DNA from: Deltaproteobacteria bacterium | GTDB lineage: Bacteria; Desulfobacterota; DSM-4660; Desulfatiglandales; Desulfatiglandaceae | Assembly (NCBI GenBank): GCA_003646995.1 | Contig: QMLZ01000106.1 | Location: 1 to 9,495 of the forward strand | Reading direction: 5' to 3' | DNA: 9,495 nucleotides | Shown: in pieces, positions 1 through 9,495 of the stretch | Layout of the letters: every line of letters starts with the position of its first letter | Numbering within the stretch: the first letter of the stretch is position 1 | Program-made: the position numbers and the translations under genes | The notes under the pieces: generated by a model | What the model was told of the DNA's origin: nothing | Databases searched by the model: none | What the model saw: the letters and a program-made list of their open reading frames with translations, nothing else

Positions 1-257
1 ACGCCCACATCAAAGAGCTCATGCCCAAGGCGATGACGGGGGTGGCTTTGACGGGGGTCAACCTTTTCACCATGCTCGGCGGTGGATTCTTCCTACACTT
101 CATGGGATGGGTCCTTGAACAGTTAGGAGGACGACAAACCCTCCCCCCTGAGGCCTACAGAACGACCTTCCTCCTCGGGGTAACAGGGATTTTTGCGGCT
201 TTTACCCTCTACTCTAAAAGTGAGGAAAGGTTCTCTGGAACATCAAATCAATGGTAA
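1..257 (+). CDS. Major facilitator superfamily transporter, C-terminal fragment (5' end outside window)
   Basis: The reading frame is open from base 3 to a TAA at 255-257 and gives 84 residues with no start needed, so this is the 3' end of a longer gene. The segment begins AHIKELMPKAMTGVALTG, which resembles the loop and helix 11 region of MFS permeases. A glycine-rich hydrophobic helix (NLFTMLGGGFFLHFMGWVL) follows, then a loop, then a last helix (TFLLGVTGIFAAFTLYS) and a short polar tail. It would be an inner-membrane secondary transporter; the substrate cannot be told from this fragment. GC content is clearly higher than in the minus-strand genes that follow. Its last 15 bases overlap the end of the convergent oxidoreductase gene. 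It could be any MFS subfamily with this C-terminal pattern; membership in the superfamily is fairly sure. Confidence 0.75.
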   Translation, partial: AHIKELMPKAMTGVALTGVNLFTMLGGGFFLHFMGWVLEQLGGRQTLPPEAYRTTFLLGVTGIFAAFTLYSKSEERFSGTSNQW

Positions 258-2009
258 AGGAGGAGGGATACCCTTTTCATCCCAACCACGCAGGCGATAG
301 TAATCTTTTTTCATCGTCTCCAACTCCTCCTCAGTTATCACACTATGTTTGCTACCTATTGCCTCGGTAAAGAAACGACGTGGTAAAGTATCATCCGAAG
401 CTGTTATGCCTTCTCTAAGATTGAAAGTTCTAGTTGCATTCCGTATACGTGAGGCAAGTTTTTGTAGGCCTTGCTTATCTAAATTCATACCTGTGGTTCC
501 GTAAATTATTTTGTTCAATTCATCCCACAAATAGAGATCTCTATAAAATCTACAAATAATAAGCGAATCAAGCAAAGTAAGCCGGTCCTCGTAATCCACA
601 AAAACCTCGGCTTTTCCCTCAATTTGATCCGGAGCAATCATGCCTGAAAGCTCTGCTTTAAATATTGTAGCACGCAAGTGGCAAGCCCCACGGTCAGATG
701 TTGCATAAGCAAGCCCCATACCTTTAAGGATCCGCGGATCATAAGCTGCCGGTTCCATTCCCTTGACGTGAATTGCAAGGTCTTCTAGATCCCATTCCTT
801 TGCGGCATGTCTTATGCCTTCAGCTAACACGGCTCCTATTCCTTCTTTCTTTGCAATTCTGTGTAAAAGGGAGACGATGGCTTCAACGTCACCGTAGTCC
901 AATTTTTCGGATATTTTCCCACGTTTGGAAGCTTCTATTGCAAAAGCAATAAGATTTCCTGCCGTAATCGTATCCATGCCTAGACGATCACAAATATCGT
1001 TCAGATAGGCAATTTCATTGATATCCAAAACCATACAAAGTCCACCAAAGGAGTAAATTGTTTCATATTCCGGTCCCTCTATTTTTAGACCTTTATGTCT
1101 CCCCTGTACGACCTCTGTAAGCCTGCCGCATGCCATAAAGCACTTGTTGCAAGCGTGAGGTTTCACGTTGCAAATTTCGTGTAAGCTCTCCGCTCCGATC
1201 TTTTCCCATCCATCAACGGTTCCTTGTGACCAATATCGTGAAGGGAAAGCCTCAAATTTGTTGACAATTGCCACCAAAGCAGGGGTCCCGTAATCCTTAA
1301 ATACCTTCACAACCGGGTGATCTTTGCTTTTTTCCAACCACTCATCCCAAAAGCTGCTCATTAACTCGGGGTAAGCAACCTCTCGTTTCTTTTCCCCGTG
1401 GAATGCCAAAGCCTTAACCTTTTTGGCGCCCAGAACTGCCCCCACTCCAGTTCTTCCTGCACATCGCCAATAATTATTGGCGATGATAGAAAAACGCACC
1501 AAATTCTCACCAGCGGGCCCTATCACCAGCACACCTGCTTCTCGGTGAGCTAGTTTCTTCTTCACCGCATCCTCTGCTTCATATGTGTGTAAACCCCATA
1601 AATCGCCCGCATCATGAAACACCACACCGCTATCCGTGATTTCTAGCCACATTGGATCTGATGAACTCCCCTGCAAGACTATGGCATCGAAACCTGTTCT
1701 GCTGATAGATTCTGCTACTCTTCCGCCTGAATATGATTCAGAATATATCCCTGTTAGTGGAGATTTTGTAAAGACACCATATCTACTTGATCCCCACACC
1801 TTGGTATCAGTAGCTGGCCCTACAGCGATGATAAAGTTGTTCTTTGACGAAAAGGGATCTATTCCAGGCTCATTATGTCTTAAGAGGAGGTATGTCGCCA
1901 ATCCTTTGCCACCTAGGTAGTTTTCATACACAGCGTCTGGCATTTTTTCAACACGGAACTTCTTATTGCTTAGATCAATAAAAAGCACATGATTGAAGAA
2001 TCCCTTCAT
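243..2009 (-). CDS. Aldehyde:ferredoxin oxidoreductase (tungsten/molybdenum AOR family)
   Basis: This 588-residue protein has about the usual AOR length (around 600). The family oxidises aldehydes to carboxylic acids in the cytoplasm, passing electrons to ferredoxin, using a tungsten or molybdenum bis-pterin cofactor and one [4Fe-4S] cluster. Visible marks: an N-terminal AOR domain with YLGGKGLATYLL (31-42) and the pterin-binding stretch AGRTGVGAVLGAKKVKAL (184-201); cluster cysteines C287, C290 and C294 (CX2CX3C) and C486 in DSLIIC; EGPEYE (311-316); and DRGACHLRA (439-447), whose H444 matches the active-site histidine of the Pyrococcus enzyme. The start ATG follows AAGGAGGGGG, 15 bases after the SDR stop. 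It is the last gene of the operon. No AorA-type ferredoxin subunit or FAD subunit lies nearby, so it is probably a stand-alone ferredoxin-linked enzyme. The C-terminus (GIPPPLPLI) departs from the usual 'GIPT..KL..LGL' tail and lies at the overlap with the MFS gene. The substrate is not known. Confidence 0.93.
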   Translation of the reverse strand: MKGFFNHVLFIDLSNKKFRVEKMPDAVYENYLGGKGLATYLLLRHNEPGIDPFSSKNNFIIAVGPATDTKVWGSSRYGVFTKSPLTGIYSESYSGGRVAESISRTGFDAIVLQGSSSDPMWLEITDSGVVFHDAGDLWGLHTYEAEDAVKKKLAHREAGVLVIGPAGENLVRFSIIANNYWRCAGRTGVGAVLGAKKVKALAFHGEKKREVAYPELMSSFWDEWLEKSKDHPVVKVFKDYGTPALVAIVNKFEAFPSRYWSQGTVDGWEKIGAESLHEICNVKPHACNKCFMACGRLTEVVQGRHKGLKIEGPEYETIYSFGGLCMVLDINEIAYLNDICDRLGMDTITAGNLIAFAIEASKRGKISEKLDYGDVEAIVSLLHRIAKKEGIGAVLAEGIRHAAKEWDLEDLAIHVKGMEPAAYDPRILKGMGLAYATSDRGACHLRATIFKAELSGMIAPDQIEGKAEVFVDYEDRLTLLDSLIICRFYRDLYLWDELNKIIYGTTGMNLDKQGLQKLASRIRNATRTFNLREGITASDDTLPRRFFTEAIGSKHSVITEEELETMKKDYYRLRGWDEKGIPPPLPLI

Positions 2010-2024
2010 ATCTCCCCCTCCTTA

Positions 2025-2795
2025 CTAAGCTGCAGTCCATCCTCCATCGACAAATATTATTTGTCCTGTAATGTAATCTGATGCTGAAGATGCCAGAAAC
2101 ACAACAGTTCCCGCTAAATCATCGGGTATCCCAGATCTCCCTAAAGGTATCCTCGAAAGGATCCACTGTCTTCGTTGCTCATCGGTGAAAACGGCCTCAG
2201 TTAGTTTCGTCTTATAGTATCCTGGCGCAATAGCGTTTACTCTAATATTATATGGAGCAAGCTCCACAGCAAGTGCTTTCGTGAGTGAAGCCACTCCTCC
2301 CTTTGTAGCTCCATATGCTGATATGTTAGCTATACCGATGACACTTGTTAATGAGGCAATATTTATAATTTTTCCTTTCTTTCTTTGGATCATTGCCCTC
2401 GCGACAAGTTGTGTCATAAAGAACACAGCTTTTAGATTAACATCCACCACCTTATCGAAGTCTGCTTCTGAAAATTCTAGAAATGGTTTCCTAATGTTAA
2501 TTCCAGCATTGTTTACTAACACATCTATTTTCCCAAACTTTTTTAAGGTCTCATCAATCACTCGCTTGCGGTCCTCTTCCTTGGTTACATTTGCTGGTAA
2601 AGCTATAATCGGAACATCAGAATTTAAACTACTTTGCAATTCAGTTACTGCCTTTTCAAGTGCTATAGGATCACGCCCAACAGCTACTATTGACGACCCT
2701 ACTGAAGCTAAAGCGCGTGCCATAGCAAATCCAAGACCACGACTTGCTCCTGTAACAATGCTAACTTCTCCTAATAGCGAAAATTGCTGCAACAT
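2025..2795 (-). CDS. Short-chain dehydrogenase/reductase (classical SDR; gluconate 5-dehydrogenase-like)
   Basis: A 256-residue classical SDR, an NAD(P)-dependent oxidoreductase acting on a hydroxyl/keto pair. The Rossmann motif TGASRGLG is at 15-22, NNAG at 95-98, and the catalytic tetrad is N120, S148, Y161, K165 (YGATK). The family C-terminal DGG is near 250-252. An arginine right after the second strand (AVGRD, R41) suggests some preference for NADP(H). The stretch NNAGINIRKPFLEFSEADFD resembles gluconate 5-dehydrogenase and FabG-like sugar-acid dehydrogenases, but SDR substrates cannot be assigned this way. I place the start at the ATG one base after the Fe-ADH stop (TGA-A-ATG). It follows AAGGAG (2805-2810) with 9-base spacing and gives the standard N-terminus MLQQFSLLGEVSIVTGAS. 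The longer frame, from 2828, would add 11 atypical residues inside the upstream gene. It probably acts on an intermediate shared with the adjacent ADH and AOR. Confidence 0.93.
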   Translation of the reverse strand: MLQQFSLLGEVSIVTGASRGLGFAMARALASVGSSIVAVGRDPIALEKAVTELQSSLNSDVPIIALPANVTKEEDRKRVIDETLKKFGKIDVLVNNAGINIRKPFLEFSEADFDKVVDVNLKAVFFMTQLVARAMIQRKKGKIINIASLTSVIGIANISAYGATKGGVASLTKALAVELAPYNIRVNAIAPGYYKTKLTEAVFTDEQRRQWILSRIPLGRSGIPDDLAGTVVFLASSASDYITGQIIFVDGGWTAA

Positions 2796-2796
2796 T

Positions 2797-3981
2797 TCAG
2801 AAAGCTCCTTCATAGATTTTACGCACATCCTCTTCCGTCAAATCTCTTGGATTTGGCACAAAAAGTCTCGCCTGCTTCATCCCACCCTCCACCAATTTCG
2901 GCAAATCGCTTCGAGGTATACCGTAGTCAGATAACTTATAAGAAATCCCTACCGCTGTGAGTAGTTTCTTCACTGCCTCTACTGATAACTCTGCTTGCTC
3001 CGCAATAGAAAGACCTTCCACCACTTCGCCCATTGCTTCTGCAATGTTTGCATATTTTCGGTAATTACCTATTAGGTTATAGCGCATAACATGAGGAAGC
3101 ATTATAGCATTGGATCGTCCATGCGACATGTGATATTCAGTCCCCAGCACATATGCCAATCCGTGCACAGCTCCGAGCCCCCCACTAGTAAACGCCAATC
3201 CCGCAACAGTGGCAGCTAACAACATGTTGTATCTCGCTTCAAGATCCGATCCTTTTGCATATGCCTTTGGGAGATTCTCTGAAATTAGGGATATTGCATG
3301 CAATGCAAGCATATCTGAAAATGGAGTGGAGTTTACAGAGACATAAGCCTCTATTGCGTGCACCAGTGCATCTACTCCAGTATCAGCTGTAACTGATTGA
3401 GGCAAAGAGAGTGTTAATAACGGATCGAGTATGGCTACATTGGCTATATTGAAATTGGTATAAACTACCTTTTTCGTATTTTCTTGCTCGTCTGTAATGA
3501 CGAATACTCTAGTAACTTCACTACCAGTTCCAGCAGTAGTGGGTACTAAGATCTTCGGAAGACCTGGCTTTGGAACTGTATCCACACCTACATAGTCCAA
3601 TACGACTCCTTTATTGGTGGCCAATATAGATACTCCTTTGGCTACATCAAGGGAACTTCCTCCCCCCACACCAATCACTAAATTAAATTTTTCTTTTCTC
3701 AGAACCTCGGCACACTTATCAACAATACGCGCTGGAGGTTCTGGCTCGACTTCATCAAATACTTTTGTTTTGAGTTTCTCCTTACGAAGGGATTCCAGTA
3801 CTGAATCTAATATGCCGCTTCTAACCACACCTTGGTCGGTCACGATCAACACCTTACGTCCGCCTAGTGCACGCGCTTCCTTACCGATTTCTGATGCAGA
3901 ACCTTCACCTATGATTATCTTGGTGGGTGATAGGAACGTACATAATTTCCTGCCTCGATAAAAAGAAACCTGCCCATTCAT
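2797..3981 (-). CDS. Iron-containing alcohol dehydrogenase (group III Fe-ADH)
   Basis: At 394 residues it has the normal length for the family, which interconverts alcohols and aldehydes or ketones with NAD(P)H in the cytoplasm. Visible: the dinucleotide-binding motif GGGSSLDVAK at 106-115; the TTAGTGSEVT segment (148-157); and all four metal ligands in the FucO-like arrangement, D204 and H208 (GVDALVHAIEAY), H273 (AVHG) and H287 (MSHG, 14 residues later). The enzyme should therefore be metal-loaded and active. The ATG overlaps the upstream permease stop as ATGA and has GGAGGG 7 bases upstream, so translation is probably coupled. Placement beside an SDR and an AOR suggests an alcohol-to-aldehyde-to-acid route or its reverse; the substrate is unknown. 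Class assignment is firm; names such as lactaldehyde reductase or 1,3-propanediol dehydrogenase would be guesses. Confidence 0.95.
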   Translation of the reverse strand: MNGQVSFYRGRKLCTFLSPTKIIIGEGSASEIGKEARALGGRKVLIVTDQGVVRSGILDSVLESLRKEKLKTKVFDEVEPEPPARIVDKCAEVLRKEKFNLVIGVGGGSSLDVAKGVSILATNKGVVLDYVGVDTVPKPGLPKILVPTTAGTGSEVTRVFVITDEQENTKKVVYTNFNIANVAILDPLLTLSLPQSVTADTGVDALVHAIEAYVSVNSTPFSDMLALHAISLISENLPKAYAKGSDLEARYNMLLAATVAGLAFTSGGLGAVHGLAYVLGTEYHMSHGRSNAIMLPHVMRYNLIGNYRKYANIAEAMGEVVEGLSIAEQAELSVEAVKKLLTAVGISYKLSDYGIPRSDLPKLVEGGMKQARLFVPNPRDLTEEDVRKIYEGAF

Positions 3982-4952
3982 AAGTAAGCCCTCCTTCCTT
4001 TAACTTTTTCTCGTATGGTTCCATAAAGTCCTTTGGGTAAGAAAATGATCAAAACTATCAGTGCAAGGCCGTAGGCCATTTCAGAAATGCCAATATATTT
4101 GGTTCCATAAGCTATTCTTATGTATTCTTCTAGTGACACAATTAAAGCAGTACCTATTGTTGGCCCCCATAGATCGAACATGCCTCCGAGAATGGCCTTA
4201 AATGGTATAGCCAGCGAAATCCCAACCCCGGATAATGTGTGAGGATTTAAATAAGTTACGTACTGTGCATAAAGAACCCCCCCTACGGCCGTCATAAATG
4301 CACTAATTACTGTCACCATTAATTTGTAATACACTATTCTTACCCCCAAACACGATGCAGCGATCTCATCTTCACCAATTGCTCTCAGAGCTTTTTGCAT
4401 GCGACTTCTATCTATAGCTTTCCAAACGTATAAGGCTATTAGTAAGAAAATTAAGGAGATGTAATAAAACCATATTTTGTTAGTGAATTGGAAATAAAGA
4501 GGAGCATTATTCAGATTTCGAATAGTGAATCCCAATGATCCCCCAGTTACTTCCCTAAAGGCAATTATCAGCAATGCTACCATTTCGCCTACTGCAAGAG
4601 TCACAAGTGCGAAGTAATCTCCGATAACTCCAAACCTAAAACAAGCATATCCCAAAATGCCTGCGAAAAGGGCAGCTGCGATCCCCCCAATAATCATGCC
4701 TAACCAAGGAGAAATTCCATAATAGTTGAAAAGCAAAGAACTAACATAGGCTCCTATTCCCAGGAATGCACCATGTCCCAGTGATACAATGCCAAATCTG
4801 CCCATATAAGCCCACGCAGTGGAAATAAACGACCAAATTAGAATCAATATGAGAATATGCGTTACGTAATCTGAACGAGTTAAAAGTGGCAAAATTGCAA
4901 GTAGCACAAAGACGACAAGCATATTGTTTTTTACTATCCTCATGTTTTTCAA
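3978..4952 (-). CDS. livM: Branched-chain amino acid-type ABC transporter permease, LivM family
   Basis: A hydrophobic inner-membrane protein of up to 324 residues, forming one half of the channel of a HAAT-family importer with the LivH-type gene just upstream. LivM hallmarks: MGRFGIVSLGHGAFLGIGAY (50-69), TGGSLG (136-141), the ATPase-contact loop AIGEDEIAASCLGVRIVYYK (191-210), and ILGGMFDLWGPTIG (254-267). A basic tail follows the last helix. The first possible start is a TTG only two bases after the LivH stop. An ATG three codons later (4943) is the alternative. Neither has a clear ribosome binding site, so translation probably depends on ribosomes finishing LivH. The 3' end overlaps the Fe-ADH start by four bases (ATGA), tying the transporter and enzyme genes into one unit. 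The substrate is not shown by the sequence. Confidence 0.93.
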   Translation of the reverse strand: MKNMRIVKNNMLVVFVLLAILPLLTRSDYVTHILILILIWSFISTAWAYMGRFGIVSLGHGAFLGIGAYVSSLLFNYYGISPWLGMIIGGIAAALFAGILGYACFRFGVIGDYFALVTLAVGEMVALLIIAFREVTGGSLGFTIRNLNNAPLYFQFTNKIWFYYISLIFLLIALYVWKAIDRSRMQKALRAIGEDEIAASCLGVRIVYYKLMVTVISAFMTAVGGVLYAQYVTYLNPHTLSGVGISLAIPFKAILGGMFDLWGPTIGTALIVSLEEYIRIAYGTKYIGISEMAYGLALIVLIIFLPKGLYGTIREKVKGRRAYL

Positions 4953-4954
4953 TT

Positions 4955-5818
4955 CTATGCTACCCTGGTTCCCAAGATCCCTTGTGGCCTGACAAGCATC
5001 ACTAGCACAAAGATCAAAAGCGCAATAATATCCGCGATTTCGGTTGTGGTAAGGACAGCAGATATCGATGTCACAATTCCAATAATGAAAGCACTAATGA
5101 ATCCTCCCAGAAGATTTCCCATCCCTCCAAGCACAACTATGATGAATGCCATGATGGTGAAGCTAGAACCAAAGTGAGGATGCACCGTGTAAATCGGCGT
5201 AAAAAAGGCAGCAACTATTCCCGTTAAAGCTCCCCCTGCTCCCATTGTTACAAAATATATCGTCCGCGAGTTTATCCCCATTGTTTGAGCTACTTCGGCA
5301 TCTTGAGCTACAGCACGTATTGCTAAACCAAGATATGTTTTATGAAGGAACACATAGAGCAAAGCAAGCGTTGCCAATGCACCAAAGAAGGCAAAAAGGC
5401 ACGAAGAGCGAAGATAAAGGCTGCCAAAATTCAATATAGGAAAATGGATAGGAATTCCTCTATAGTCCGCCCCCCAAATTACCATAGCTAAGTTTTCGAA
5501 TATAATTATGAGCCCTGCCAATGCCAACAATTGATTTAAACGAGGAGCGTTTAGTAAAGGATCGATTAGCAAATATTGGGTTACAACCCCTAAAGCTCCC
5601 ATAGCAGCAACTGCTATAATACACGAGATCAGCAATGGTACATGCAGCTGTACTGTAAGAGCATATATTAGATAAAATCCAAGCATTACAAATTGACCGT
5701 AAGCCATGTGGATGATTTTAACTACTCCAAAAATTAGGTTAAGTCCAAAGGCAAGAAGAGCTAGAACTCCGCCTAACAACAAGCCATTAATAGCAGCGTT
5801 TAGTACTTGTTCAACCAA
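4955..5818 (-). CDS. livH: Branched-chain amino acid-type ABC transporter permease, LivH family (TTG start)
   Basis: A 287-residue polytopic inner-membrane permease with the LivH pattern: AINGLLLGGVLALLAFGLNL at 9-28 and IFGVVKIIHMAYGQFVMLGF directly after it (29-48). The cytoplasmic coupling loop IRAVAQDAEVAQTMGINSRT is at 167-186, VVLGGMGNLLGGFISA at 228-243, and the C-terminal VRPQGILG near 276-283. It pairs with LivM to form the translocation pore. The start codon is TTG (− strand 5818-5816). It is supported by a very strong Shine-Dalgarno sequence (AAGGAGGAGGGG) with about 7 bases from its GGAGG core, and by an N-terminus of normal length. It lies 24 bases after the LivF-type ATPase. The ligand is unknown; the family also imports amides, urea and other compounds. 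Confidence 0.93.
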   Translation of the reverse strand: MVEQVLNAAINGLLLGGVLALLAFGLNLIFGVVKIIHMAYGQFVMLGFYLIYALTVQLHVPLLISCIIAVAAMGALGVVTQYLLIDPLLNAPRLNQLLALAGLIIIFENLAMVIWGADYRGIPIHFPILNFGSLYLRSSCLFAFFGALATLALLYVFLHKTYLGLAIRAVAQDAEVAQTMGINSRTIYFVTMGAGGALTGIVAAFFTPIYTVHPHFGSSFTIMAFIIVVLGGMGNLLGGFISAFIIGIVTSISAVLTTTEIADIIALLIFVLVMLVRPQGILGTRVA

Positions 5819-5819
5819 T

Positions 5820-5832
5820 ACCCCTCCTCCTT
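5820..5832 (-). promoter_or_regulatory. Strong ribosome binding site that decides the TTG start of livH
   Basis: Minus-strand AAGGAGGAGGGGT lies just before the TTG at 5818. No in-frame ATG lies at this distance, so the site fixes the rare start codon. The same 13 bases occur before the solute-binding protein gene (8649-8661). Confidence 0.75.
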
Positions 5833-5842
5833 GATATTGAGA

Positions 5843-6547
5843 TTAAATCCCTAAATATGCCTTCTTTATATACGGATTTTGGAGGAATTCATCGCGCACC
5901 CCCTCAAAAGTTATTTCACCCGATTCTAGCAAGTACGCATATTCTGCCAACTGCAAAGCTTTCTTGGCATTCTGTTCCACCATTAAAATTGAGTAGCCTT
6001 TAGTCCCGATTTCCTTAATGAATTCGAAAACCCGAGCAACTATCTTAGGAGCTAATCCCAGCGAAGGTTCATCAAGCATTATTAACTTTGGTTGTGCCAT
6101 CAAACTGCGAGCTATAGCTAGCATTTGTCGCTCACCACCACTGAGTGATCCGGCCAATTGATTTCTTCTATCTTTCAACACTGGAAATAGTTCAAATACC
6201 TCTTCTACTGCCTCACTAAAGGTTCTTCTAGCATGTTTTGGGTAGCTTCCGACTTTTAAATTCTCGTAAACACTAAGGTAAGGGAACAACCTCCCTCCTT
6301 CGGGTACAAAGGCAATTCCCAACTCGGAAATTTTATACGGGGAACAGCTATCTATACGTTGGCCGTTGAATTCAATAATTCCTTTTTTCGGCTTCAGTAA
6401 CCCAGCAATATGCTTGAGCAACGTTGTCTTTCCAGCACCATTTGGGCCTACGACAATAACTGTTTGTCCTGGGTTAACCTCAATAGTGATGTTATGAAGT
6501 ACTATAAAGTCACCGTATCCACCAACTAGATCTCTCACACGAAGCAT
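5843..6547 (-). CDS. livF: Branched-chain amino acid-type ABC transporter ATP-binding protein, LivF family
   Basis: A 234-residue cytoplasmic ATPase, the usual LivF length. Walker A is GPNGAGKT at 34-41. The Q-loop region reads VPEGGRLFPYLSV (81-93), typical of LivF. The ABC signature LSGGE is at 135-139, Walker B LIMLDE at 155-160 with catalytic E160, and the switch region is MVEQN (189-193), where LivF proteins carry Q instead of the usual H-loop histidine. It should form a heterodimer with the LivG-type protein encoded one base upstream (TGA-T-ATG), powering import through LivH/LivM. There is no strong ribosome binding site, only GAAGAG, so it is probably translated by coupling to livG. 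Family assignment is firm; the transported ligand is not. Confidence 0.95.
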   Translation of the reverse strand: MLRVRDLVGGYGDFIVLHNITIEVNPGQTVIVVGPNGAGKTTLLKHIAGLLKPKKGIIEFNGQRIDSCSPYKISELGIAFVPEGGRLFPYLSVYENLKVGSYPKHARRTFSEAVEEVFELFPVLKDRRNQLAGSLSGGERQMLAIARSLMAQPKLIMLDEPSLGLAPKIVARVFEFIKEIGTKGYSILMVEQNAKKALQLAEYAYLLESGEITFEGVRDEFLQNPYIKKAYLGI

Positions 6548-6548
6548 A

Positions 6549-7271
6549 TCACTCTTCGCCTAAGTATGCTTCAATAACTCTTTCATTGTTTGCAATTTCG
6601 CGAGGAGAACCGTCAGCTATTAATTCTCCATAATCTAGAACAATGACTCGATCAACCAAATTCATTAATGCACCCATAATATGCTCAACCCATATGATAG
6701 TAACACCAAGTTCTGCATGAATCTTTTTTAATATGCGGGCTGCTTGCTCTAATTCTTCTTTGTTAAGTCCGCTAAGCACTTCGTCTGCTAAAAGCACTTT
6801 AGGCTTAGTAGCGAGAGCCTTCGCTAATTCCAGTCTCCTAAGGCCAACAGCCGTAAGTTCATCTGGCATCGTTTTTTCTGTCACTTCTAACCCTACAAAG
6901 GAAAGACATTCAAGAGCCAATTGCTTCGCTTTTCCCTCGTCTGAGTCAGCAGATTTCTTACCAAATAGCGCTCCTATCATCACATTTTCCAACACTGTCA
7001 TATCCCTAAAAGGACGGGGAATTTGAAAAGTCCTGACTATTCCCAGATGGCAAATCCTATCGGGAGTAAGCCCCGTTATATCCCGGCTGTAATAGAAAAT
7101 CTTTCCTTTATTCGGCTTCAAAACTCCCGAAATCACATTGAAGAGCGTGGTCTTCCCCGATCCGTTCGGACCGATAAGGCCCACAAATTCCCCTTCACAT
7201 ATCTCCACCGAGATACCGGACAGTGCCGCCAATCCCCCAAAATACTTACTGACCTTCTCCAATCTCAGCAT
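6549..7271 (-). CDS. livG: Branched-chain amino acid-type ABC transporter ATP-binding protein, LivG family
   Basis: A 240-residue ATPase with Walker A GPNGSGKT at 34-41, a Q-loop in RTFQIPRPF (80-88), Walker B VLLADE at 159-164 with catalytic E164, and H-loop H197 in VEHIMG. The signature region reads LTAVGLRRLELAKAL (139-153) rather than LSGGQ or the more usual LPYGxQRRLE. A degenerate LTLxxRKRLE-type signature is known in part of the LivG family, so this is a variant and not evidence of loss. The full signature in LivF would form one normal ATP site. The ATG is preceded by TTTTAATAAATGCA with no recognisable Shine-Dalgarno sequence, which is unusual in this operon. A stem-loop separates it from the binding-protein gene. 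Translation may be weak or depend on readthrough mRNA structure. Confidence 0.93.
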   Translation of the reverse strand: MLRLEKVSKYFGGLAALSGISVEICEGEFVGLIGPNGSGKTTLFNVISGVLKPNKGKIFYYSRDITGLTPDRICHLGIVRTFQIPRPFRDMTVLENVMIGALFGKKSADSDEGKAKQLALECLSFVGLEVTEKTMPDELTAVGLRRLELAKALATKPKVLLADEVLSGLNKEELEQAARILKKIHAELGVTIIWVEHIMGALMNLVDRVIVLDYGELIADGSPREIANNERVIEAYLGEE

Positions 7272-7280
7272 TGCATTTAT

Positions 7281-7330
7281 TAAAACACTAAAATTGGTGG
7301 CGCCCGCATATTTGAGCGAGCGCCACCAAT
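7281..7330 (-). terminator. Intercistronic stem-loop (attenuator or leaky terminator) after the binding-protein gene
   Basis: Two perfectly complementary 11-base arms, ATTGGTGGCGC (7293-7303 on the plus strand) and GCGCCACCAAT (7320-7330), enclose a 16-base loop. On the minus strand the hairpin starts 7 bases after the stop codon of the solute-binding protein and is followed by TTTTAGTGTTTTA, an interrupted T-tract. This is the expected place for a partial terminator or mRNA-stabilising hairpin that keeps binding protein in excess over membrane parts, as known in other ABC import operons. The stem is plain in the sequence; the degree of termination is inferred. Confidence 0.8.
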
Positions 7331-7337
7331 CGTTTAG

Positions 7338-8645
7338 CTATGGTGCAAACGGTGAATCAGCGGGAAATGGCAGTTTGGGCTTGGCAGTTTGTAGTGCACT
7401 GGGCCATGCAATCTCTATCTTGCCGTTTACCCATTGCATTACAACTGGGTAGGAACGAAGGTTCTGTCCAGCATATTCGTGCTCGGGCGGAGCAAATTTT
7501 ACTCCATATCCACAAGGAGTAGCTCCCTCAGGGATGTCAAGATCTCGAGCGGCCATGCGGATTGTGTCAGCCGTAACTTTACCATACTTCTTGACTGCTC
7601 TAGGCAATACTTCATGCACCATTACCCAAGTATGGCCGAAGCCCTGTGTTGCATGAGTCGGCGGGTTAGCCTCCCCGTATTTCTGCCTATAGCGATTCAA
7701 AAATTCAGCAATCAGCCTGCCCATACCAGGCTTCAACTTCCTCACATCTAAAATCTGTGCAGGAGCAGGATCAACATTATAAAGATAGTTCACAATTTCT
7801 CTGCCAAGAGACTTTTCTAGAAGAGGAAAGTTAGCGTATCCAGCTCCATGACCAATAATTGCTTTCGTCTTCAGTCCTAATTCTCTCGCTTGCCTCAAGA
7901 AAAGAACTATATCGGGAAAATAGCCTGTATGTAAAATAACATCTGGACGATGAGCTTTTAGTTTGAGAACGAGAGATGACAGATCTTTCGCAGTATGTGA
8001 GTAACCTTCCTTCAAAACTATTTTCATTCCATATTTTTTCAATTGAGCTTCATTTGCTTTTGACACAGAACTTCCGTACGGGCCATCCTCATGGATAATG
8101 GCTACCTTCACATCTTTTGGGGAGGAGTAACCAAGACTAGTATAATTCTCGTTCAGAAAATTCACAGAGCTTTTTCCCCACTGGGAACCCATTGGCTGAA
8201 CACGAAAAACGTATTGCTGGTGTCGTCCTTTTACTATTTTATCGGAAATTGCAATGATAACCCAAAAAACCGTATGATTCTGCTCACATATAGGCGCAAG
8301 GGGAACACCGATAGAACTCGAGTAATCTCCTAAAATAACCGGGACCTTTTCGACTGAAATCAACCTTTTTGCTTCCCTAATGGCTATATCGGGGTTACTT
8401 TGAGCATCTGCTGTAATTGGTTTAATTTTGCACCCTGGGATCCAACCTTTTTCATTTGCCATCTCAATGGCAATCATCGAACCTCTATAGCCCGCAAGAG
8501 CTCCTGCAGGTGCAAATGGCCCCGTAAGGGAAAACAAAACGCCAATTTTTATCTCGTTGGAAGACCCAATTGCTCCATTAGGAAACGTCAATAGCAGCGT
8601 TAAAATACAGACCAGCCCTAACGCTATTGCCAACGCTTTCTTCAT
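7338..8645 (-). CDS. Periplasmic solute-binding protein of a HAAT/Liv-type ABC transporter (Peripla_BP_6)
   Basis: A 435-residue protein that captures the ligand and delivers it to the LivHMGF-type complex encoded downstream. Residues 1-27 form a signal peptide: MKK, a long hydrophobic core (LAIALGLVCILTLLLTF), then a likely signal peptidase I site after AIG. C13 sits inside the core without a lipobox, so this is not a lipoprotein. The mature start EIKIGVLFSLTGPFAPAG is typical of LivJ/LivK-like type I folds, as are ITADAQSNPDIAIREAKRLI (77-96) and VILGDYSSSIGVPLAP (103-118). It is longer than LivK (about 370), with extra sequence toward the C-terminus (PPEHEYAGQNLRSYPVVMQW). The ATG follows a very strong AAGGAGGAGGGG. 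The gene lies 40 bases after the regulator. Ligand specificity cannot be read from the sequence; related proteins bind amino acids, amides, urea or aromatic acids. Confidence 0.94.
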   Translation of the reverse strand: MKKALAIALGLVCILTLLLTFPNGAIGSSNEIKIGVLFSLTGPFAPAGALAGYRGSMIAIEMANEKGWIPGCKIKPITADAQSNPDIAIREAKRLISVEKVPVILGDYSSSIGVPLAPICEQNHTVFWVIIAISDKIVKGRHQQYVFRVQPMGSQWGKSSVNFLNENYTSLGYSSPKDVKVAIIHEDGPYGSSVSKANEAQLKKYGMKIVLKEGYSHTAKDLSSLVLKLKAHRPDVILHTGYFPDIVLFLRQARELGLKTKAIIGHGAGYANFPLLEKSLGREIVNYLYNVDPAPAQILDVRKLKPGMGRLIAEFLNRYRQKYGEANPPTHATQGFGHTWVMVHEVLPRAVKKYGKVTADTIRMAARDLDIPEGATPCGYGVKFAPPEHEYAGQNLRSYPVVMQWVNGKIEIAWPSALQTAKPKLPFPADSPFAP

Positions 8646-8648
8646 AAC

Positions 8649-8661
8649 ACCCCTCCTCCTT
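8649..8661 (-). promoter_or_regulatory. Strong ribosome binding site of the solute-binding protein gene
   Basis: Minus-strand AAGGAGGAGGGGT ends three bases before the ATG, with the upstream GGAGG core at the best distance. It is the strongest type of site in the operon and fits high-level production of the binding protein. The identical 13-mer precedes livH. Confidence 0.75.
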
Positions 8662-8685
8662 TGTGTTTTGAATTAACACTAAATT

Positions 8686-9243
8686 TTAATATGTTGGCGG
8701 GCTGATAACCCATATTACCTCCGTGACGCTTTTTCCTCGATTGATGTACCCATGAGGCCTTGTAGAATCGAAATAGAAACTGTCTCCTTCATTCAAGGAG
8801 TAAACTTTATCTTCAATCCTCAACTCAAGCGTACCACGTACTACGTACCCAAACTCTTGACCACCACTGTGTGAATATAGCCCATGACTGCCTGCACCCG
8901 GTTCAAAGCGAGCCAAAAGTGGCTCCATATTCTTACCTGCCAATGACTTCACTAAAAGGAAAATAGATGCATCACCTTGAGGATACCTAATTTCAAAACC
9001 TTCTCCTTTCCTGATCACTATCTCCTCATCGGCGTCAGATTCTACAAATAAGTCAACGAGTTTAACACCAAGGGCAGTCGCAATATTCTTTAATGTAGAA
9101 ATAGAAGGGCTGGCGATCCCTTTTTCAATTTGAGATATGTAGCCACTTGTACACCCAGCCCTTTTAGCCAACTCGTTCACAGTAAATTTCCTACTTCGTC
9201 TCAAAATTTTTATCTTCGCCCCAAGTTTCTTGAGTTCTTCCAT
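8686..9243 (-). CDS. XRE-family transcriptional regulator with C-terminal cupin domain
   Basis: A 185-residue protein, standard for HTH-XRE/cupin_2 regulators. The N-terminal DNA-binding domain spans about 6-65: LGAKIKILRRSRKFTVNELA, then helix-turn-helix GCTSGYISQIEKGIASPSIS (30-49), then LKNIATALGV. The cupin barrel spans about 105-182: SHSGGQEFGYVVRGTLELRI (124-143) and GDSFYFDSTRPHGYIN (153-168). Only one histidine of the usual HxH pair is present (H125, with E130 and H164), so metal binding is uncertain and the pocket may bind an organic effector instead. It is the first gene of the block and very probably controls it and itself, because the only good promoter lies just upstream. No Shine-Dalgarno sequence is visible before its ATG (GGCGTTTAAAATG). 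The effector, and whether it represses or activates, are unknown. Confidence 0.93.
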   Translation of the reverse strand: MEELKKLGAKIKILRRSRKFTVNELAKRAGCTSGYISQIEKGIASPSISTLKNIATALGVKLVDLFVESDADEEIVIRKGEGFEIRYPQGDASIFLLVKSLAGKNMEPLLARFEPGAGSHGLYSHSGGQEFGYVVRGTLELRIEDKVYSLNEGDSFYFDSTRPHGYINRGKSVTEVIWVISPPTY

Positions 9244-9260: not shown

Positions 9261-9291
9261 TACTATAACTAATAAATGCATACTATACGTA
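9261..9291. repeat. Direct repeat TACTATAnnTA, 20-base period (candidate operator)
   Basis: TACTATAACTA at 9261-9271 and TACTATACGTA at 9281-9291 share 9 of 11 bases and start exactly 20 bases apart, about two turns of the helix. One copy lies between the −35 and −10 boxes proposed for the regulator gene; the other touches the −10 box and the expected start of transcription. That arrangement suits binding of the XRE regulator to its own promoter (inference). The core 7-mer also occurs singly inside coding sequence, for example at 6500-6506, so only the spaced pair is notable. Confidence 0.5.
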
Positions 9292-9300
9292 AACTGTCAA
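9271..9300 (-). promoter_or_regulatory. Candidate sigma-70 promoter of the regulator/transport/oxidoreductase operon
   Basis: The minus strand has a perfect −35 box TTGACA (plus-strand 9295-9300) and, after 18 bases, TTTATT (9271-9276, 4 of 6 matches to TATAAT). Transcription would begin near 9264, about 20 bases before the regulator ATG. No comparable promoter was seen in the short gaps further down the operon. The −35 is convincing; the −10 is weak, as expected for a regulated promoter. Confidence 0.5.
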
Positions 9301-9390: not shown

Positions 9391-9495
9391 ATGGAAAAAC
9401 TCGCTAAGCTTCAAGAGCGTTTGGGTTATTCCTTTCGTCGCTTGGAGCTCCTGCAAGAAGCCCTCACTCACCGTTCTTACGGGAAACCCGATAAT
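9391..9495 (+). CDS. rnc: Ribonuclease III, N-terminal fragment (3' end outside window)
   Basis: The last 105 bases encode 35 residues starting MEKLAKLQERLGYSFRRLEL and continuing LQEALTHRSYGKPDN. The pattern LxERLGYxF...LLxEALTHRSY is the typical N-terminus of bacterial RNase III, a dimeric endonuclease that cuts double-stranded RNA during rRNA and mRNA processing. The catalytic signature (ERLEFLGD region) lies beyond the window. The start is fixed by an in-frame TGA immediately before the ATG. The nearest Shine-Dalgarno-like GGAGG ends 23 bases upstream, too far for normal use. GC content matches the MFS fragment at the other edge, so both may belong to the older chromosomal backbone. It is read away from the minus-strand operon, with 147 bases between the divergent starts. 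Confidence 0.85.
   Translation, partial: MEKLAKLQERLGYSFRRLELLQEALTHRSYGKPDN

What the first reader, a model, noticed from the sequence alone, without database searches (positions are those of the whole stretch)
243..9243. Self-contained operon joining a Liv/HAAT-type importer to SDR, Fe-ADH and AOR, led by an XRE-cupin regulator
Nine minus-strand genes with gaps of at most 66 bases combine high-affinity uptake, three successive-type oxidoreductases and a likely sensor. Such transporters are usually assumed to carry amino acids, but none of the adjacent enzymes is an amino acid transaminase, decarboxylase or ligase. The set fits import of a hydroxylated or aldehyde-forming compound, oxidised by SDR and ADH to an aldehyde and then by AOR to an acid with ferredoxin reduction; the reverse direction is also possible. 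I do not know a described pathway with exactly this set.
Basis: partly seen in the sequence, partly recalled or inferred. Interest (0 to 1): 0.7.

Follow-up and report, generated by a model that had tools for sequence, protein, structure and literature searches.

The report
Hydroxy-acid import-and-oxidation operon (inferred)
This is a nine-gene operon, probably from a sulfate-reducing type of bacterium, that seems to pull in a small hydroxylated compound that is not an amino acid and oxidise it in two steps to an acid, and relatives of it show that such importer-plus-oxidiser operons recur although their substrate is still unknown.

Summary
The nine minus-strand genes are real, at the stated coordinates, with gaps of at most 66 bases. 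The linkage is conserved. In a tree of the binding protein, window and 10 other loci of one 19-row clade have the Fe-ADH near; 0 of 61 rows outside do. Starting from the ADH, 23 of 30 loci (of 64 hits in 395 genomes) have a Liv/HAAT gene directly upstream; in 17 of these the gene order differs, and the sister binding proteins are only 22-27% identical. So importers joined related ADHs at least twice, and AORs of at least three lineages joined window-type operons. The SDR recurs but is optional. All 77 aligned binding proteins lack the glutamate that holds the amino group in leucine-binding protein (role recalled). Best reading: import of a small hydroxycarboxylate or polyol, NAD-linked oxidation to an aldehyde by the ADH, ferredoxin-linked oxidation to an acid by AOR. 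Some sister operons carry GABA transaminase or 4-hydroxybutyryl-CoA dehydratase genes, hinting at 4-hydroxybutyrate there; this does not transfer safely to the window. Substrate and direction are untested. ADH plus AOR alcohol oxidation is known; I found no account of the importer coupling.

The parts
8686..9243 (-). XRE-family HTH + cupin regulator (185 aa)
   Evidence: HTH_3 4.8e-14, Cupin_2 5.3e-20; below PuuR cut-off, 75.4 of 211 bits; similar protein near sister operon L136 is also HTH_3 + Cupin_2, those of L220 and L222 by similarity only, 38 and 41%
7338..8645 (-). HAAT-type periplasmic binding protein (435 aa), N-terminus looks like a signal peptide (by eye)
7292..7331 (-). RNA hairpin between binding protein and LivG, possible attenuator or mRNA stabiliser
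   Evidence: 16 pairs; -34.5 kcal/mol, z -7.79
6549..7271 (-). LivG-type ATPase (240 aa)
   Evidence: ABC_tran 2.7e-24 and BCA_ABC_TP_C 8.3e-12
5843..6547 (-). LivF-type ATPase (234 aa)
   Evidence: ABC_tran 3.2e-33; best NCBIfam LivF, below cut-off
4955..5818 (-). LivH-type permease (287 aa)
   Evidence: BPD_transp_2 2.9e-33
3978..4952 (-). LivM-type permease (324 aa)
   Evidence: BPD_transp_2 3.3e-31
2797..3981 (-). Iron-type (group III) alcohol dehydrogenase (394 aa), conserved partner of the importer
   Evidence: Fe-ADH 1.5e-53 and ADH_Fe_C 4.3e-63; D204, H208, H273, H287 invariant in 13 aligned sequences, window included; distinct subfamily, 10 hits over 600 bits against 459 or less for the rest
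2025..2828 (-). SDR (267 aa as ORF; likely start at 2795), gluconate 5-dehydrogenase/KduD-like
   Evidence: adh_short_C2 2.5e-69; of the 25 NCBIfam models shown only a broad subfamily cut-off is reached; profile best solved match gluconate 5-dehydrogenase 1vl8; Y172 and K176 invariant in A5
243..2009 (-). Aldehyde:ferredoxin oxidoreductase (588 aa)
   Evidence: AFOR_N 1.6e-69, AFOR_C 3.6e-123; C287, C290, C294, C486, E314 and H444 invariant in 16 aligned sequences, window included

Best explanation
The operon is a dedicated import-and-oxidise unit. A HAAT-type ABC importer takes up a small hydroxylated compound that is not an amino acid, most likely a hydroxycarboxylate. The Fe-ADH oxidises its primary alcohol to an aldehyde with NAD, and the AOR oxidises the aldehyde to a carboxylic acid, reducing ferredoxin. 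The KduD-like SDR handles a secondary alcohol or ketone form of the same or a related compound. The XRE-cupin protein is the local regulator. Shown here: gene content, conserved linkage, repeated recruitment, conserved expected active-site residues, loss of the amino-binding glutamate. Inferred: substrate class, cofactor use, direction, regulator role.
For: SBP-LivG-LivF-LivH-LivM-ADH order in L001, L002, L003, L006, L007, L012, L131 and L132; L008 and L009 have ADH-SBP-GFHM-AOR-SDR; L177 has GFHM-ADH-AOR-SDR and L174 FHM-ADH-SDR-ligase, both starting inside the operon at a contig end (ADH of L174). SBP tree: ADH in window plus 10 rows of a 19-row clade, in 0 of 61 rows outside. 23 of 30 ADH loci have a HAAT gene directly upstream, same strand. 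17 of 64 ADH hits lie under 1 kb upstream of an AOR hit, all on the same strand. Separate AOR lineages in window, L006 and L008/L009/L177. Equal contig lengths suggest 7 SBP-ADH linkages, one of them the contig of L008, and 3 AOR-ADH linkages besides the window's own. LBP E226 is H in 17 of 17 clade rows and 57 of 60 outside rows. In D. kuznetsovii an ADH and an AOR with neighbouring locus tags are both abundant on methanol and ethanol (PMC5770442, passages).
Against: 6 clade members have no ADH near: L005, L010, L013, L017, L133 and, with only about 1.5 kb visible past LivM, L134. Neither AOR nor SDR is near the ADH in L001, L003, L007, L131, so the acid-forming step is not universal or is encoded elsewhere. 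In G002, which holds the nearest relative L012, an AOR related to the window's lies at another locus; whether one also followed the SDR there cannot be seen (contig end). No SBP-AOR pair shared a contig length. No substrate was measured; the pocket reading rests on alignment to a protein about 22% identical. In the one transporter-dehydrogenase-AOR cluster that I read about, the recombinant AOR showed no activity on the expected aldehyde (PMC6278857).
Confidence: 0.6

Rival explanations
1. Specific form: the substrate is 4-hydroxybutyrate or a close omega-hydroxy acid; ADH makes the semialdehyde and AOR the dicarboxylate.
For: In sister loci (ADH 41-49% to the window's), GABA transaminase (50% identity or more) or an AbfD-like dehydratase lies within 9 kb of the ADH in 8 of 22, against 0 of 66 HAAT control loci. 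GabT of L164 and L225 passes TIGR00700; L208 dehydratase hits AbfD 1u8v with 568 bits. L163, L164, L168 have CoA-transferase-ADH-GabT, and their ADHs nest in the sister ADH clade. L005, L010, L011, L017, of the window's binding-protein clade, have a CoA-transferase nearby; that of L005 is of the same Pfam families as that of L164.
Against: None of these genes was found within 9 kb in the 11 window-type loci scored, in the hit list of the twelfth (L174), or in the window. The window ADH scores 256.6 of 500 on the 4-hydroxybutyrate dehydrogenase model. AbfD-like genes are in 11 of 15 genomes with a window-type ADH or operon against 5 of 15 others, weak, and not in G002. The SDR has no role in this scheme. 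By their titles the control loci are mostly from other phyla.
Confidence: 0.22
2. The substrate is a diol, polyol or sulfonate such as 2,3-dihydroxypropane-1-sulfonate; SDR acts on the secondary and ADH on the primary alcohol.
For: SDR is near gluconate and hexonate dehydrogenases and (R)-DHPS dehydrogenase (8wwf rank 10); ADH scores 336.6 bits on the SarD model; in L002 (Pfam) and L132 (by similarity) a zinc-type dehydrogenase gene follows the ADH or SDR; a DHPS-induced set with ABC importer, dehydrogenase and AOR is reported in Desulfovibrio DF1 (passages).
Against: ADH is far below the SarD cut-off (700). That DHPS importer is of the SsuA/TauT kind, not HAAT. No desulfonating gene is among the nine.
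Confidence: 0.13
3. Reverse or protective use: AOR and ADH reduce acids or remove aldehydes, and the importer supplies an acid.
For: AOR and ADH run in reverse in gas-fermenting bacteria (recalled; [quoted passage not shown] Acid-activating genes sit near some window-type loci: L001, L002, L132.
Against: Acyl-CoA ligases beside the ADH suit consumption of the acid product as well. A high-affinity importer fits catabolism better than a bulk electron sink (inference).
Confidence: 0.12
4. Ordinary branched-chain amino acid importer beside unrelated dehydrogenases by chance.
For: Fold and family are LIV-like; AOR genes are abundant in such genomes (up to 20 matches in one genome) and SDR is a very common family.
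Against: Conserved, repeatedly rebuilt linkage; amino-binding glutamate absent.
Confidence: 0.05

Closest known systems
ADH/AOR alcohol oxidation of sulfate reducers (D. kuznetsovii Desku_2952/Desku_2951; S. fructosivorans Adh3929/Aor2487)
   Same: Same pair of activities: alcohol dehydrogenase giving NADH, then AOR giving reduced ferredoxin (PMC5770442, PMC10084766; passages). Locus tags are neighbours in D. kuznetsovii.
   Different: Those act on methanol or ethanol, and no importer is named in the passages that I read; the two genes are not neighbours by locus tag in S. fructosivorans. Here a HAAT importer and an SDR are in the operon. Orthology with those enzymes was not tested.
LIV-I / HAAT branched-chain amino acid importers (E. 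coli LivKHMGF)
   Same: All five components and fold.
   Different: Bits on the NCBIfam Liv models are below cut-off; LBP E226 is replaced by H266 and W18 by A47; the neighbours are oxidoreductases.
SAR11_0655 (PDB 8wch) binding protein, co-purified with L-pyroglutamate
   Different: 26% identity; its physiological ligand was not checked (paper not held).
DHPS genes of Desulfovibrio sp. DF1
   Same: ABC importer, alcohol dehydrogenase and AOR genes on one contig (PMC6278857, passages).
   Different: Different importer family and dehydrogenase family; that AOR was inactive on the expected aldehyde.
Clostridial GABA / 4-hydroxybutyrate pathway (AbfD, CoA-transferase, 4-hydroxybutyrate dehydrogenase)
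   Same: Some sister ADH operons carry AbfD-like and GabT genes.
   Different: Not present in the window; window ADH is below the 4-hydroxybutyrate dehydrogenase cut-off.

Membership tests
HAAT/LIV-type ABC importer | Type I binding protein, two BPD_transp_2 permeases, two ATPases in one operon | tested here: met
Branched-chain amino acid (LIV-I) importer | Glutamate for the ligand amino group (LBP E226; role recalled) | tested here: not met
   H in 17 of 17 clade rows, H or N in 60 of 60 outside rows
Branched-chain amino acid (LIV-I) importer | Curated NCBIfam cut-offs of LivF, LivG, LivH, LivM and the binding-protein model | tested here: not met
   215/441, 188.4/362, 71.4/379, 102.6/366 and 115/477 bits
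Tungsten aldehyde:ferredoxin oxidoreductase | AFOR_N and AFOR_C domains, four cluster cysteines, active-site Glu and His (residue roles recalled) | tested here: met
Tungsten aldehyde:ferredoxin oxidoreductase | Aldehyde oxidation with ferredoxin | not testable with these tools
   needs protein
Group III Fe-dependent alcohol dehydrogenase | Fe-ADH domains and Asp-His-His-His metal site (roles recalled) | tested here: met
4-hydroxybutyrate dehydrogenase, sulfoacetaldehyde reductase SarD, ErcA, lactaldehyde reductase | NCBIfam cut-offs | tested here: not met
   256.6/500, 336.6/700, 369.8/550, 328.4/523.15 bits
KduD / gluconate 5-dehydrogenase | NCBIfam cut-offs | tested here: not met
   KduD (TIGR01832) 268.3 of 338.85; gluconate 5-dehydrogenase PRK08085 254.1 of 408 and PRK08213 252.6 of 279 bits
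PuuR-type regulator | NCBIfam cut-off | tested here: not met
   75.4 of 211 bits
ADH-AOR alcohol oxidation as in D. kuznetsovii | ADH and AOR genes side by side or in one operon | tested here: met
   (one SDR gene between them); also 17 of 64 ADH hits in the survey
ADH-AOR alcohol oxidation as in D. kuznetsovii | Orthology with Desku_2952/Desku_2951 | not tested
   their sequences were not fetched

The most novel reading that the evidence does not exclude
There is a large, undescribed class of import-and-oxidise operons in Desulfobacterota-type and Desulfotomaculum-type bacteria (groups judged from record titles), in which at least two arrangements of HAAT importers (SBP-HMGF and SBP-GFHM, with distantly related binding proteins) were each joined to related Fe-ADHs and to AORs of several lineages. 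Their importers carry hydroxy acids or related compounds without an amino group. Many transporters annotated as branched-chain amino acid uptake in these bacteria would then be feeding ferredoxin-reducing oxidation of hydroxylated compounds.
Probability: 0.45. Interest if true: 0.65.

Novelty: new variant of a known kind. Interest (0 to 1): 0.5.

Why it matters
HAAT importers are numerous in sulfate-reducing and syntrophic bacteria and are mostly labelled as amino acid transporters (general knowledge; the source names read so). Conserved coupling to Fe-ADH and AOR gives a concrete, testable reason to relabel a group of them and predicts an uptake route for hydroxylated dissolved organic matter with ferredoxin-level energy gain.

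Tried and rejected
Chance adjacency: rejected by the linkage counts. One fixed three-enzyme pathway: rejected, because AOR and SDR are optional and AOR is replaced by distant lineages. Transfer of the 4-hydroxybutyrate reading to the window: kept only as a rival, since genome-level presence of the AbfD-like gene hardly discriminates. Riboswitch or known RNA: no Rfam match in the window at gathering scores. Promoter-like sites in the window are at chance level, 21 found against 19.1 expected. Literature: of the four library searches for the gene set, one search found 0 papers with at least 4 of 5 terms, and searches listed 3, 9 and 3 papers. I read passages of PMC6278857, PMC11505543 and PMC11201294 from these; the others I saw as listings only. 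Through I read passages of PMC5770442, PMC11206085 and PMC10084766. In what I saw no importer-ADH-AOR operon is described. The paper on SAR11 binding proteins is not held, and a search for the entry code found nothing. In many genomes the whole-genome searches scored only the top 3-5 candidates, so their counts are lower bounds. Of two structure predictions allowed I used one.
Full report
What is there. Nine minus-strand ORFs run from 9243 to 243: XRE-cupin, binding protein (SBP), LivG, LivF, LivH, LivM, Fe-ADH, SDR, AOR, each supported by Pfam. The largest gap is 66 bases, between SBP and LivG; it holds a 16-pair hairpin, and the region folds with -34.5 kcal/mol, z -7.79, which may set a higher level for the SBP than for the rest. 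The listed SDR ORF overlaps the ADH by 32 bases; relatives begin later, so I place the start at 2795. The flanks are a plus-strand ORF with a weak RNase III match (E 5e-5) at 9391-9495 and the 3' end of a probable transporter gene at 3-257 (E 0.023). No genome is held for the window.

Expected active-site residues are present. AOR has C287, C290, C294, C486, E314 and H444 invariant over 16 aligned sequences; that these are the cluster ligands and active-site residues is recalled from the Pyrococcus enzyme. ADH has D204, H208, H273 and H287 invariant over 13, the expected metal site (recalled). The SDR keeps Tyr172 and Lys176. In the model lists shown (25 at most for each protein), none of the nine proteins reaches an NCBIfam cut-off except the SDR, and that only for a broad subfamily, glucose 1-dehydrogenase PRK07231, 263.6 over 215 bits.

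The linkage from the importer side. A profile of the SBP found 244 places in named genomes, of which the best 80 were kept as loci. SBP-LivG-LivF-LivH-LivM-ADH occurs in L001, L002, L003, L006, L007, L012 and in two further regions, L131 and L132. L008 (a Desulfovirgula MAG) and L009 have ADH-SBP-GFHM-AOR-SDR with a sigma-54 activator in front. I gave 85 loci plus the window to the tree script; 79 loci and the window passed the filters. One pair of rows, L037 and L135, is identical and apparently the same contig. Window and all 10 ADH-bearing loci fall in one 19-row clade (SH-aLRT 100). Of the other 8 clade rows, L004 ends inside LivM and L011 inside LivG, so they cannot tell; L005, L010, L013, L017 and L133 have no ADH near, nor does L134, of which only about 1.5 kb past LivM is visible. 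Outside the clade 0 of 61 rows have the ADH within 9 kb. Of 66 loci used as controls outside the clade, 33 had more than 6 kb on both sides, so part of the zero rests on short contigs.

The linkage from the enzyme side. A profile of the window-type ADH against 395 genomes of the phylum of G002 gave 64 hits in 56 genomes. Ten hits score above 600 bits, the rest at most 459. For the 30 hits returned as loci, 23 have a HAAT gene directly upstream on the same strand: LivM in 6, LivF or LivG in 17. The other seven are L143 (beside a TRAP importer by eye, L172), L149 (beside a sugar ABC importer by eye, L176), L159, L163, L164, L167 and L168. A second window-type copy in G331, L173, has no importer next to it that I recognised. 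A profile of the AOR gave 97 hits in 83 of 395 genomes. 17 of the 64 ADH hits lie under 1 kb from one of these AORs, always on the same strand with ADH first. I fetched 20 regions, 17 of these pairs and 3 wider cases: 19 of 20 have HAAT genes just upstream of the ADH, and the exception, L213, starts at a contig end. As contrast, of 29 AOR loci shown, only L191 and L192 have LivG-LivF directly before the AOR; L189 has a weak ATPase match before it and L194 and L195 a binding-protein gene after it.

Two arrangements. Most of the sister operons read SBP-LivH-LivM-LivG-LivF-ADH-AOR (L224 to L226 lack the AOR directly after the ADH), with binding proteins 22-27% identical to the window's, ADH 44-48% and AOR 54-64%. 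The window type reads SBP-G-F-H-M-ADH. So different HAAT importers were joined to related ADHs. In addition a window-type ADH (66%) in L175 sits behind an importer of the other arrangement. AORs of window-type operons come from at least three places on the AOR tree (FastTree, local support): window with L178, L179, L181 and L183; L006 beside many sister operons; and a distant lineage in L008, L009 and L177. The last has a different cysteine spacing but retains AFOR domains (Pfam for L008 and L177). This repeated assembly is the strongest argument that importer, ADH and AOR act together.

Further linkage. Exact equality of longest-contig lengths among protein hits suggests 7 SBP-ADH pairs, one of them on the contig of L008, and 4 AOR-ADH pairs, one of them on the window's own contig, against about 0.2 expected by chance for each. 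No SBP-AOR equality was found, although the window itself has both.

Clues from neighbours. In sister loci GABA transaminase (50% or more) or an AbfD-like dehydratase lies within 9 kb of the ADH in 8 of 22; two more, L209 and L210, carry AbfD-like pieces at the edge of the region. GabT of L164 and L225 passes the TIGR00700 cut-off, and the L208 dehydratase matches AbfD of Clostridium (1u8v) with the C-x3-C and H-x6-C positions kept (their role as cluster ligands is recalled). In L163, L164 and L168 the ADH lies between a CoA-transferase and GabT. Hence a 4-hydroxybutyrate/succinate semialdehyde role is plausible for the sister ADHs. For the window type the recurrent extras are an SDR (window, L006, L008, L009, L012, L132, L174, L177), an acyl-CoA ligase (L001, L002, L132, and L174 by similarity) and a zinc-type dehydrogenase (L002, and L132 by similarity). 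The SDR is nearest to gluconate 5-dehydrogenases, with (R)-DHPS dehydrogenase also in the list. These suggest a hydroxylated acid or polyol whose product is an acid made into a CoA ester. AbfD-like genes are in 11 of 15 genomes with a window-type ADH or operon and in 5 of 15 others, which is weak.

How it works, step by step. Shown: genes, order, conserved residues, conserved linkage. Inferred: uptake by the importer; NAD-linked oxidation of a primary alcohol by the ADH; ferredoxin-linked oxidation of the aldehyde by AOR; side reaction on a secondary alcohol by the SDR; regulation by the XRE-cupin protein. The ADH-AOR logic is supported in cultured sulfate reducers: both proteins are abundant on methanol and ethanol in D. 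kuznetsovii (PMC5770442); in S. fructosivorans the ADH is essential for growth on ethanol and the AOR is proposed for the second step (PMC10084766). A caution comes from Desulfovibrio DF1, where the AOR coded with a DHPS dehydrogenase was inactive on the expected aldehyde (PMC6278857).

Distribution. The SBP is patchy: 21 of 395 genomes of the phylum of G002 at E 1e-60; at E 1e-100, 2 of 85 in the order of G001, 1 of 10 in the class of G002, 1 of 199 in the phylum of G004 and 1 of 299 in that of G003, which look like one phylum. This suggests movement between lineages, though I did not test transfer by comparing trees with species relations.

Novelty. Each part is known and the ADH-AOR step is known. 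The conserved addition of a HAAT importer, in two arrangements, was not found in the searches listed under Tried and rejected. I therefore call it a new variant of a known kind, with the substrate as the open question.

Noticed in passing
window 7292-7331, minus strand: Strong hairpin followed by a T-rich stretch between binding protein and LivG, likely a partial terminator or 3' stabiliser.
   Followed up: partly
window 9261-9292: A 12-base near-repeat (TACTATAACTAA / TACTATACGTAA, spacing 20) just upstream of the regulator gene, a possible operator; short two-copy repeats are often chance.
   Followed up: no
window 9391-9495, plus strand: Start of a likely RNase III gene, divergent from the operon (weak match, E 5e-5).
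   Followed up: partly
window 3-257, plus strand: C-terminal piece of a probable membrane transporter, overlapping the end of the AOR gene tail to tail (weak family match, E 0.023).
   Followed up: partly
L207-L226, L136, L137: Recurrent sister operons SBP-HMGF-ADH-AOR, many with a sigma-54-activator-like gene near (Pfam only for L136); a larger find than the window itself.
   Followed up: partly
L008, L009, L177: A distant AOR lineage with C-x3-C-x3-C spacing and a GADH motif where the window has GACH.
   Followed up: partly
L138: In the genome of the Desulfovirgula MAG (G003) an AOR (53%) lies near a hydantoinase/oxoprolinase gene; interesting because the best solved SBP match held pyroglutamate.
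   Followed up: no
L005, L010, L011, L017: Members of the SBP clade without a visible ADH have an XRE-like regulator, a CoA-transferase and an ATPase that looks MoxR-like by eye, the L005 one giving no Pfam match at 1e-10.
   Followed up: partly
L009 (G004): Record titled Armatimonadetes, yet its phylum sample lists the same genomes (G474 onward) as that of the Desulfovirgula MAG, so the title may be wrong.
   Followed up: no
table: Many AOR hits show exactly one in-frame stop, of all three kinds; probably the gene's own end inside the aligned range, not checked.
   Followed up: no
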